Assembly: GCA_023052935.1 (NCBI GenBank)
Contig: CM041294.1
Location: 42,369,736 to 42,433,735, forward strand
Direction of reading: 5' to 3'
DNA: 64,000 nucleotides
Source of the DNA: Piezodorus guildinii
Taxonomy: Eukaryota > Arthropoda > Insecta > Hemiptera > Pentatomidae
Under the pieces are notes generated by a model. The model saw nothing but the letters and a program-made list of their open reading frames with translations, did no database searches and had not been told where the DNA came from. Shown here piece by piece: positions 53,901 through 56,900 of the stretch. Every line of letters starts with the position of its first letter. The stretch's first letter is position 1. A program made the position numbers and the translations under genes.

Positions 53901-56900
53901 TAAACAGACTTTATCCCTTATTTTTCATAGATTAGTACATATTTATTAGAATTAGTAATGCTTTGTTGAGGAAAGAGCTAAAAACATTATAACAGTGAAA
54001 CTATAGTCAAGTGTAGAATATGAATCATAAAATAATTTGGTTGTGGTATGGTCATTGAAGAAATCGCTCTTAAAATAAGGAAACTTATTTTATTATGTCC
54101 TCAATAAAATAAAATTAGTATCTTTATTCAAGTGTGATATCTTTAATGAGTCCACCTCCTACCTTATTCTCATACAAAGAATTTACAATGTATACATTTT
54201 TTTAAATTCAAAAATCTTTGATATTCAATGTGATTCATACTATTTTTTTTTTTTTATAGTAATTATTACTGAATGTTCATTATTCCAATGCTCTTTAAAA
54301 AAAAATTGTTTTTTCTTAAATTCTTCTTGTTTAGTTTTATAATAAAAAAAAAAGAAAATGGTTGTTGTACAGAACCAAAATGAAATAACTCTATTTAAAA
54401 GAAAATAGTTATAAAACTCATATTGGAAGTTTTTACTTACTGTATTTTACCAGTAAAATTAGTGATAAAAGCATGTAAAATAATTTATTTTTCTACGGAT
54501 CGTTTTTAGTTAGTCCTCCTCTGTATTTAGGATTTTTTGGTTTTTTTCGGATGCTATGACAGACCTTGTAGGCCCATAGTTGCACGATGCAGATTACTAG
54601 GATTGTCAATGATTAGTTTGCTATAGGGTAGGATTATTACTTCCTATGCCTATTTTTGTGAGTGGCCACCAGTTGACTAATGGGCCTCACATACAAGGGG
54701 ATAGACTTTGATTGAGTCCCAATTTCATTCTATGCTTGAAAAAAAAAAGTGCTCTCGAGACTGAGATTCTAACTCAGAACCCAGTTTATGCTTGGACATG
54801 GCTCAGTAATGCACTGATGATGGCTCACAAACTTGAGCCGAAACGTCCGCATAATTAAAATATTTAGAAAAAGACTGACTCCTGATTATTCCACCTATAA
54901 TAGTTTCTACAGTCGCCTGTACATCCCCAATGTAACTCAAAACCTTTAATCGTAGAAGACAAGCGGGATGCTTGCTGGCATAGCAATACAGCTCCAGGTT
55001 CTCCTTAGGGTTTTATTTCTTATAAAAAAATGTATAAATTTTTTTTTTCTTATTTTATCTAACAATTTATAACTTACTAAGTTGATATGACACATATTTT
55101 ATATGTTTCTTAAGATTATAGTACAATTAATATACCTTTGAATTGGAGGAGGACTCTGCTGGTAAAAAATCCTGGCTATCATTTTTATTAGGTTGATTAT
55201 TTCTTCACAGTGTAAAAATCATAATATCTTGCAAAAATCTAGAAACGTATATTTCGTGATTTTCTTTTTTTTTTTTTTTTTTTTTTTTTTAACAATTATT
55301 TTATGGATTTCTGTTTAATTTTTGCATTTCCGATCCCAATCGCATTCAATTATGGGTCATTCAGAATTAGAGTCATAAGAAAATATGGAGTAATATTGAT
55401 TCCTATTAAAGATGATGATGAAATTTGAAAGTTGAGGGAATTATTTAAGAATAGTTTGCTTTTCTCTTATGATAACAATTTTAACAAGAATTAAATGTTG
55501 AAAATCTATAATTATATTCTCATTTTTCTTTATTATTGACACAGCCTTTGTTTTCTTGCAGGAGGTGACCCTTGTGAAAGATGGTGGCTCCCTTGGTTTC
55601 AGTATTATCGGCGGGACTGATCACTCATGCATCCCCTTCGGTGGAGATAAACCCGGAATATTCATATCACATGTGTGTATTTTTAAATATTTTTTCATGT
55701 TTACTTATCCTTTTCAGGCTTTCTTGAAATAATATAAAGCATTTCCAAGTCAATGGTTACCTTTTCCAAAGCAAATGTAATCTTCTCTATTTCAAATGTA
55801 ACCTTTTCCTCAAACAATTGAATAGGAAAGGATTACATTTGAAATGGAGAAGGTTGCATTTGCTTTGGAAATGCTATATATGATTGTATTATGTAAATAT
55901 AATTTATTCGGGATAAAATTTATCCTGACGTGAATAAACTTGATCTAATTCTTTCCATTTATCAACAAATCTGTACGATTCTCTTAACGAACAAGTCGTT
56001 ATTATTCCCTATTCTCAATAGATTTTCGTCTAAATGGAACTATATTTTTTAATGATATTTTATACCACCAGTTTAAAACACCTTGCTAATTTAATTAATA
56101 CTTTAAACAAATAAAAAGATGTAATCTATTTATTCATTACTTTGCTAAATTACGGTTTTTCATGGTAAATCTTGTAATTATCATGTATCAAGTTGAAGAA
56201 TTTACCCATATTTATTTTTAAGAAGAAAAAAAATAAAAAAACTATTTACATATTTACAAAATGACATGAAATCTGCAAATGATTTAGGATGAGACATCCT
56301 TATAATCAATAATCCATTAGCCTAAATGACTAATAAGTGATAAAATTAAAATTGAAATTATAGTACGGTTGTAAAAAATTATGAAAAAATTATACGAAAC
56401 ACATACATATTGTTTATATTTAAAAATGTAGCACTAATTACTAATTAACAGATTGCTGATGCATCTTATGGGATAATATTTGATATATCCCAGCCCTTCC
56501 TGTTTTGATTCAGAATGATTGATTACTTGATATGTATGAAATTATTCAAAGACCTTTACCAATATTTCTTAAGCAAATGATCAGCATTTTATTAAAAATT
56601 CAAACAGGTACTTACTTATCTTCATTTTTTTATTTACATTTGACTTGAAAATGATGTATCTGATAAGGTATTCAATTTACAATTCCCAAGTTTAATCCAA
56701 AAATGTATCACACTGCTTATAAAAAAAAAAAAATCTTTTCGAATTACTATAAATGTAATAAGATGCCACCAGTGAAACCCTCAATTGAAATAAATATGAC
56801 AATTTTATCAAGAGGAAGTAGATAAATGTTATCTATCATGCTTTATTTAACTTATGAGATTATTTGTTCTCTTAGAAACCAACCATTTTACTGTGTATTG

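What the first reader, a model, noticed from the sequence alone, without database searches (positions are those of the whole stretch)
54770..54944. A 151-bp mobile unit carrying a hammerhead-ribozyme-like core, with its own target duplication
Seen: a unit at 54782-54932 interrupts a SINE and is bracketed by 12-base direct repeats (taactca-g/a-aacc). Inside it, in order, are CTGATGA, a 6-bp stem II with loop CAAACT, GAAA, CGTC, and flanks that can form a short stem I. Known: this is the conserved core order of the hammerhead ribozyme, and hammerheads with tiny stem III occur in the terminal repeats of Penelope-like elements and in small retrozyme-type retroelements. Inference: the unit is a small retroelement, or a truncated Penelope terminal repeat, that moves as RNA and may use the ribozyme for processing. 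Stem III is only the palindrome ACGT, so cleavage would probably need two copies paired.
Basis: partly seen in the sequence, partly recalled or inferred. Interest (0 to 1): 0.82.

Follow-up and report, generated by a model that had tools for sequence, protein, structure and literature searches.

The report
Ribozyme-bearing mini-Penelope element
A 151-base mobile DNA unit, probably in an arthropod genome, carries the core of a self-cutting RNA and shows the insertion marks of Penelope-type retroelements although it has no genes of its own, which suggests one way such tiny ribozymes become scattered through a genome.

Summary
A 151-bp unit (54782-54932) with a hammerhead core interrupts a tRNA-like SINE; 10 of 10 fetched copies of that SINE pass the insertion point without the unit. 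The unit is a repeat (39 other copies fetched; crudely 10^4-10^5 in the genome). In 27 of 40 copies (one doubtful) an inverted partial copy lies head to head before it, and target duplications lie outside the composite (24 of 40; control 2%). Inverted copies end at unit 117-125 in 22 of 27, about 31 bases short of the forward end at 151. This is the "tail" signature of Penelope-like elements (PLEs), and the distances match the biochemically tested Anolis PLE. PLEs abound in this genome, neighbour pairs being head to head (18) and never tail to tail (0); 58 of 70 PLE loci carry the same reduced hammerhead. Across 17 motifs stem I and the core 3-8 pair covary. Best reading: an ORF-less unit copied by PLE machinery from two internal start sites. 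Cleavage before copying is not supported: no end clusters at the cut site. The window copy has lost the stem I closing pair. No autonomous partner was found, and ribozyme activity is untested.

The parts
54770..54781 (.). left target-site duplication TAACTCAGAACC
   Evidence: last C may equally belong to the element (CCAGTTT)
54933..54944 (.). right target-site duplication TAACTCAAAACC
54782..54932 (+). 151-bp unit, copy without an inverted arm
   Evidence: 40 copies aligned
54790..54794 (+). GCTTG, possible pseudoknot partner of loop II CAAGC (5 bp in consensus; one pair lost here)
   Evidence: inference from the consensus; 27 of 40 copies keep all 5 pairs; not tested across families
54810..54813 (+). 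stem I 5' strand TGCA (consensus TGCC)
   Evidence: stem I covaries across motifs
54814..54820 (+). hammerhead core CTGATGA (C3-A9)
54821..54821 (+). extra U between A9 and stem II; an extra base also in 56 of 58 PLE loci with the motif and in Anolis PAc
54822..54839 (+). stem II GGCTCA / TGAGCC with loop CAAACT (consensus CAAGCT)
54840..54847 (+). GAAACGTC: G12 A13 A14, stem III reduced to ACGT, predicted cut after C54847
   Evidence: numbering recalled from the hammerhead convention
54848..54851 (+). stem I 3' strand CGCA (consensus GGCA)
54873..54914 (+). two-tier stem-loop (54873-54877 with 54910-54914; inner 54884-54890 with 54899-54905) with an ACC-containing loop
   Evidence: MFE fold; two-tier hairpins also predicted in L071 and PAc
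54898..54906 (+). inferred reverse-transcription start 1 (arm outer ends at unit 117-125)
   Evidence: 22 of 27 arms
54930..54932 (+). inferred reverse-transcription start 2 (forward, 'tailed' end at unit 151)
10070..10341 (.). another copy, head to head, TSD ATTTATTTTTTAAT
48469..48743 (.). another head-to-head copy, TSD AACTTGGTAAT
46678..46841 (.). older head-to-head copy with both arms starting at unit 56-60, TSD TAATTTTTTTAT
12828..13038 (.). older head-to-head copy, no clear TSD
36480..36599 (+). older single-arm copy (unit 28-149), no clear TSD

Best explanation
The unit is an ORF-less, non-autonomous element made by the machinery of a Penelope-like element. An RNA starting at (C)CAGTTT carries a minimal hammerhead and a downstream two-tier stem-loop. 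PLE protein cuts both target strands, and each strand primes reverse transcription internally at one of two start sites (unit ~120 and ~151), running towards the RNA 5' end. Joining the two cDNAs gives a head-to-head pair, one arm with the 31-base tail and one without and often shortened, flanked by a target duplication of mostly 12-16 bp. The window copy has only the tailed arm. Shown: unit family, arms, end positions, duplications, sites without the unit, PLEs with the same ribozyme form in this genome. Inferred: the acting enzyme, the RNA 5' end and the order of steps. Whether the ribozyme cuts is open; if it does, there is no sign that it does so before copying.
For: Head-to-head arms in 27 of 40 copies (one a doubtful 13-nt match), outer ends at 117-125 in 22 of 27. 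TSD outside the composite in 24 of 40 vs 2% control. Arms share private variants with their own forward unit (22% of 106 vs 3% on average with other loci; own identity higher in 19 of 22), and 9 of 17 fillers of 10 nt or more hold longer pieces of the unit than shuffles (p below 0.05), as in template switching. Ends relative to the ribozyme cut fall at two distances in three families: unit 54 and 85; L071 type 60-73 and 101-108; L057 type 89-103 and mostly 131-147. Of 27 GIY-YIG neighbour pairs within 8 kb, 18 are head to head, 9 tandem, 0 tail to tail (on the 150 places). L071: two PLE ORFs head to head, 315-bp pLTRs, 43-base tail on one arm; GIY-YIG in its C-terminal piece, RVT_1 in 4 of 4 homologues. 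Ribozyme motif on the coding strand in 58 of 70 PLE loci, 0 hits in 20 resampled sets; covariation 90.4% paired vs 62.7% shuffled, 0/500. Published: Anolis PAc starts at two adjacent internal sites and extends both strands, and its printed template has the same extra U (PMC11167929); 31-bp tail and shorter inverted pLTR in rotifer Penelope (PMC3846280).
Against: No PLE among 71 loci read carries the full unit, so the autonomous partner is not identified. The 40 copies were the best matches to the whole unit, which biases forward copies to completeness and names the tailed arm 'forward'; an unbiased 3'-only search did not complete. The sequence around the start sites is not alignable between the unit and the PLE families (one search found only weak, decayed likenesses). 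16 of 40 copies lack a TSD scoring 9 or more, one of the 24 is a poly-A run, and 13 of 40 lack an arm. 12 of 70 PLE loci lack the motif and 4 of 70 have one on the other strand; the 70 loci overlap in part and most belong to two large groups.
Confidence: 0.83

Rival explanations
1. By-product, not a separate element: the unit is only the leader of a full-length PLE mRNA, copied when reverse transcription starts inside the first leader and runs off the 5' end. (A variant of the best explanation, not exclusive of it.)
For: Internal initiation close to the mRNA 5' end would give such short products (inference from PMC11167929); the ATG at unit 39 lies where the PAc ORF starts.
Against: No PLE with this leader among 71 loci; in the consensus the frame after that ATG stops after 12 codons (read); copies from about 71 to 95% identity to the window unit share the layout, so the lineage has persisted. 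A PLE outside the sample is possible.
Confidence: 0.3
2. Metazoan non-LTR retrozyme: tandem copies are transcribed, the hammerhead cuts monomers, they circularise, and the circle is reverse transcribed.
For: Repeat size 150-300 bp and type I hammerhead (PMC7761336, passages).
Against: No adjacent direct tandem copy at 40 loci (one further same-strand copy lies about 240 bp away in L017); copies are head to head; ends do not fall at the cut; stem III reduced as in the PLE motifs.
Confidence: 0.07
3. Ordinary tRNA-type SINE copied by a LINE, the hammerhead being a chance match.
For: A-box-like TGGCTCAGT at unit 18-26 (recalled consensus, read by eye); LINE-type ORFs are in the window.
Against: No poly(A) or simple 3' tail in the aligned copies; inverted arms with a fixed offset; the same ribozyme form in 58 of 70 PLE loci with covariation.
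Confidence: 0.04
4. Fold-back DNA transposon or MITE with inverted repeats.
For: Inverted repeats flanked by duplications.
Against: Arms unequal and variably cut at the inside, TSD length variable (9-17), 13 of 40 copies without an arm, fillers with unit pieces.
Confidence: 0.02

Closest known systems
Canonical Penelope-like elements (Poseidon/PAc of Anolis; Penelope of Adineta vaga)
   Same: Head-to-head inverted ends, optional 30-40 bp tail, TSD outside, minimal hammerhead with one extra base before stem II (PAc), tailed start 82-92 nt after the ribozyme cut in PAc and 85 in the unit.
   Different: No ORF, no RT or endonuclease, 151 or about 270 bp in all; alignable with the PLEs examined here in no more than the ribozyme region.
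Minimal dispersed type I hammerheads of animal genomes (Cervera and de la Pena 2014; Lunse et al. 2017; neither paper held, known from citing papers and recall)
   Same: Hammerhead with reduced stem III, dispersed in non-coding DNA.
   Different: Here the dispersed motif is placed in a defined mobile unit with ends, arms and duplications.
Metazoan non-LTR retrozymes
   Same: Small, ORF-less, type I hammerhead.
   Different: No adjacent tandem copies seen, ends not at the cut site, stem III reduced.
tRNA-derived SINEs
   Same: Short, abundant, TSD of similar length.
   Different: No simple 3' tail, head-to-head inversion with fixed offset; the SINE here is the target.

Membership tests
Penelope-like element (autonomous) | ORF with telomerase-like RT and GIY-YIG endonuclease | tested here: not met
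   151 bp in all; consensus frame from ATG39 stops after 12 codons
Penelope-like element (end structure) | inverted head-to-head terminal repeats | tested here: met
   27 of 40 copies, one doubtful
Penelope-like element (end structure) | optional 30-40 bp tail on one arm | tested here: met
   22 of 27 arm ends at 117-125 vs forward end 151; two end clusters also in two PLE families of this genome
Penelope-like element (end structure) | TSD outside the composite | tested here: met
   24 of 40 vs 2% control
Penelope-like element (mobilisation) | an autonomous PLE sharing the unit's ends | tested here: inconclusive
   0 of 71 PLE loci has the full unit; 150 of 2216 GIY-YIG candidates were scored and 70 loci at such places fetched
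Hammerhead ribozyme | conserved core nucleotides and stems I and II | tested here: met
   consensus has all; 26 of 40 copies keep the core and 13 of 40 keep core plus both stems; the window copy fails stem I pair 1
Hammerhead ribozyme | stem III | tested here: not met
   only ACGT; the PLE-type reduced form
Hammerhead ribozyme | match to an Rfam hammerhead model | tested here: not met
   none in the window at gathering score, in 54700-55000 at E up to 10, or in five PLE loci at E up to 1
Hammerhead ribozyme | self-cleavage | not testable with these tools
   needs in vitro RNA
Non-LTR retrozyme | direct tandem repeats of the monomer | tested here: not met
   none adjacent at 40 loci
Non-LTR retrozyme | circular RNA | not testable with these tools
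   no RNA data
SINE | Pol III promoter and LINE-type 3' end | tested here: inconclusive
   A-box-like string by eye only; no simple 3' tail

The most novel reading that the evidence does not exclude
Many of the minimal hammerheads dispersed in animal genomes are not relics of long PLEs but a class of gene-less mini-PLEs: a transcription start, a hammerhead fold and a start-site stem-loop, copied from both target strands. In them, and in PLEs, the hammerhead fold would serve to dock or place the reverse transcriptase rather than to cut the template.
Probability: 0.35. Interest if true: 0.75.

Novelty: new variant of a known kind. Interest (0 to 1): 0.52.

Why it matters
Passages of a review seen here say that the role of PLE hammerheads is still a mystery and that most minimal hammerheads lie dispersed in non-coding DNA (PMC7761336). 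This unit ties one such dispersed family to a defined insertion product. Its 151 bases seem to keep little but the start-site signals, so it is a small natural substrate for testing how PLE enzymes start internally on both strands and whether the ribozyme is needed. The PLEs beside it offer natural core variants (U3-A8 in place of C3-G8) for activity tests.

Tried and rejected
Within-family conservation of the ribozyme was tested and not found (4.1% vs 3.9% mismatches). The L057 hammerhead (L057:1-95) was first taken for part of a PLE; one search showed it to be a separate repeat shared with L082. It remains one hit (L057 also has its own PLE motif, so the locus count is unchanged), and L057 and L082 are two of the 17 rows. 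Folding is ambiguous: for the full unit a forced hammerhead costs 3.7-4.8 kcal/mol over the best fold; the 103-nt consensus piece is not clearly better than shuffles (z -1.26), the 49-nt cores are (z -3.66, -4.70) but partly through a competing GAUG/CGUC pairing, and the L071 motif is not (z -1.04). One search required stem II of 3 or more and stem I of 2 or more pairs and left positions 3 and 8 free. One search required stem II only. For one search, 14 of the 16 PLE-set 30-mers were entered; two were dropped as chance (a second L071 hit, and L078, whose 3-8 is A-A and would have lowered that pair's 100%). Of the 28 unit-set 30-mers 2 were entered (consensus type and window); the other 26 are unit variants, some with broken 3-8 or stem pairs, and about seven chance hits. 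PAc was added from the paper. So stem II is preselected; stem I and 3-8 are the free evidence. Pfam on the whole L071 protein showed no GIY-YIG or RT; only the C-terminal piece showed GIY-YIG. No PDB match. Papers: Lunse 2017, Cervera 2014 and Arkhipova 2017 are not held. I read parts 1-3 of 4 of PMC11167929, the outline and two sections of PMC3846280, and passages of PMC7761336, PMC7229834, PMC6155905, PMC6431247 and PMC10085705; other papers only as listings. Searches for a description of such a unit showed none in their listings; a search for C3U with G8A hammerheads gave 0 papers; one for PLEs in stink bug genomes gave 0. The arthropod initiator TCAGTY, similar to the (C)CAGTTT start, is recalled and untested.

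Full report
What is there. The window lies in a 1.203-Gb eukaryotic genome of 434 contigs, with seven large ones seen. LRR and PDZ matches in the window suggest a Scribble-like gene; arthropod is likely, and a true bug is only my guess. At 54782-54932 is a 151-bp unit between 12-base direct repeats. A genome search scored 40 of 1118 first-look candidates, the window included. All 40 were fetched with flanks and aligned: they agree from CAGTTT to CCTCAATA and diverge outside. The base before CAGTTT is C in 30 of 40. Identity of the forward units to their consensus is 93-99%.

Insertion. The surrounding repeat exists without the unit: 10 of 10 fetched copies, of 39 found, pass the site with one AACTCA(C/G)AACC. 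So the unit inserted into a tRNA-like SINE and duplicated its target. Of six unit-like elements in the window, four have duplications matched by at most 0.3% of random pairings and two have none.

Composite. In 27 of 40 copies an inverted partial copy lies 5' of the forward unit, head to head, 0-42 bases away (26 of these also at the stricter threshold, the 27th being a 13-nt match in L007). Its outer end is at unit 117-125 in 22 of 27; the others are at 29, 77, 109, 128 and 149. Its inner end is at 1-7 in 14 of 27 and scattered elsewhere. Duplications lie outside the composite: 24 of 40 score at least 9, against 2% when flanks of different loci are paired; one of the 24 is a poly-A run. Arms share 22% of 106 private variants with their own forward unit and 3% with other loci; own identity is higher in 19 of 22; 9 of 17 longer fillers hold pieces of the unit beyond chance. 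This looks like one event that copied the same kind of RNA from both target strands, with template switching at the join.

PLEs of the same genome. A GIY-YIG search scored 150 of 2216 candidates, all 150 above the cut-off, 11 in open frames of 900 codons or more. Of 27 neighbour pairs within 8 kb, 18 are head to head, 9 tandem and 0 tail to tail. L071 holds two ORFs head to head, 99.97% identical over 3479 bases, with 315-bp pLTRs and a 43-base tail on one arm only. The C-terminal piece of its protein has GIY-YIG (the whole protein gave no such hit), and 4 of 4 homologues carry RVT_1. Measured from the ribozyme cut, 3' ends fall at two distances in each family: unit 54 and 85; L071 type 60-73 and 101-108 (three pieces run on past that); L057 type 89-103 and mostly 131-147, with a spread to 163 and some internal breaks. 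The tested Anolis element PAc starts reverse transcription at two adjacent internal sites, the preferred one 111-118 bases into its ORF, and extends both target strands (PMC11167929). Its printed template has the cut 29 bases into the ORF by my count (the paper says 26), so that start lies about 82-92 bases after the cut. Rotifer Penelope has a 31-bp tail and an inverted pLTR 37 bp shorter than the direct ones (PMC3846280).

The ribozyme. The family consensus has stem I TGCC/GGCA, CTGATGA, one U, stem II GGCTCA/TGAGCC, GAAACGTC. The window copy lost the stem I closing pair. With both stems required and positions 3 and 8 left free, 58 of 70 PLE loci have such a motif on the coding strand, 4 of 70 on the other, and no hit appears in 20 resampled sets of the coding strand. 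The 70 loci are not independent: some overlap (L111 repeats the place of L049) and most belong to two groups. By locus the 3-8 pair is U-A in 44, C-G in 13 and both in one (L057); no other pair occurs; 56 of 58 can be read with one extra base before stem II and none with no extra base. On 17 motifs (14 PLE-set, two unit, PAc), 90.4% of cells pair against 62.7% in shuffles (0 of 500) and at most 59% when slid; 7 of 8 pairs change on both sides; pair 3-8 is C-G in 12 and U-A in 5; stem I pairs in 80.9%. Stem II was preselected, and one chance-like motif with an A-A at 3-8 was left out. The extra base is also in PAc. Rfam 15 showed no hammerhead match in the stretches searched.

Does it cut? Unknown. 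No arm inner end (27) and no inner end of the five other window copies (9) falls at 66-68. The 40 forward copies span the cut, but were selected for length. So there is no sign of cut templates. This fits PAc, where ribozyme mutants still insert in vitro and cutting needed the protein. Within the family the ribozyme decays like the rest, so selection, if any, acts on source copies.

Copy number. Five further elements in the window and one in about 44 kb of flanks give roughly 10^4-10^5 per genome. The 173 kb of PLE loci held only one partial match, so the estimate is crude; the genome-wide count did not complete.

Verdict. The unit works like a PLE end without a PLE. It fails the ORF test for PLE membership and meets the end-structure tests. 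The main gap is the partner.

Noticed in passing
L041 and 44 other PLE loci of 70: The largest PLE groups carry TTGANAA instead of CTGANGA: natural U3-A8 in place of the core C3-G8 pair, with stems I and II kept.
   Followed up: partly
L057:1-95 and L082:1314-1389: A second dispersed repeat with a hammerhead core (CTGATGA-A-GGCC...GGCC-GAAACGTC), 92% alike over 76 bp, not part of the neighbouring PLE in L057.
   Followed up: partly
L071:507-8036: Young PLE pair, two ORFs head to head, 99.97% identical over 3479 bases, TSD-like TTTATAATC at both ends.
   Followed up: partly
window 18745-21324 (+) and 40357-42546 (-): Two LINE-type ORFs with RVT_1 and endonuclease matches (859 and 729 codons open).
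   Followed up: no
window 1734-2159 (-): Mariner-like transposase remnant (PF01359, PF13358).
   Followed up: no
window 14353-14649, 15320-15646, 34957-35274, 58752-59096 (+): LRR and PDZ matches, perhaps exons of one Scribble-like gene (name recalled), so the unit may lie in an intron.
   Followed up: partly
unit positions 17-24 and 39-46 (54798-54805, 54820-54827): ATGGCTCA occurs twice; the upstream copy could pair with the 3' strand of stem II and compete with the ribozyme fold.
   Followed up: no
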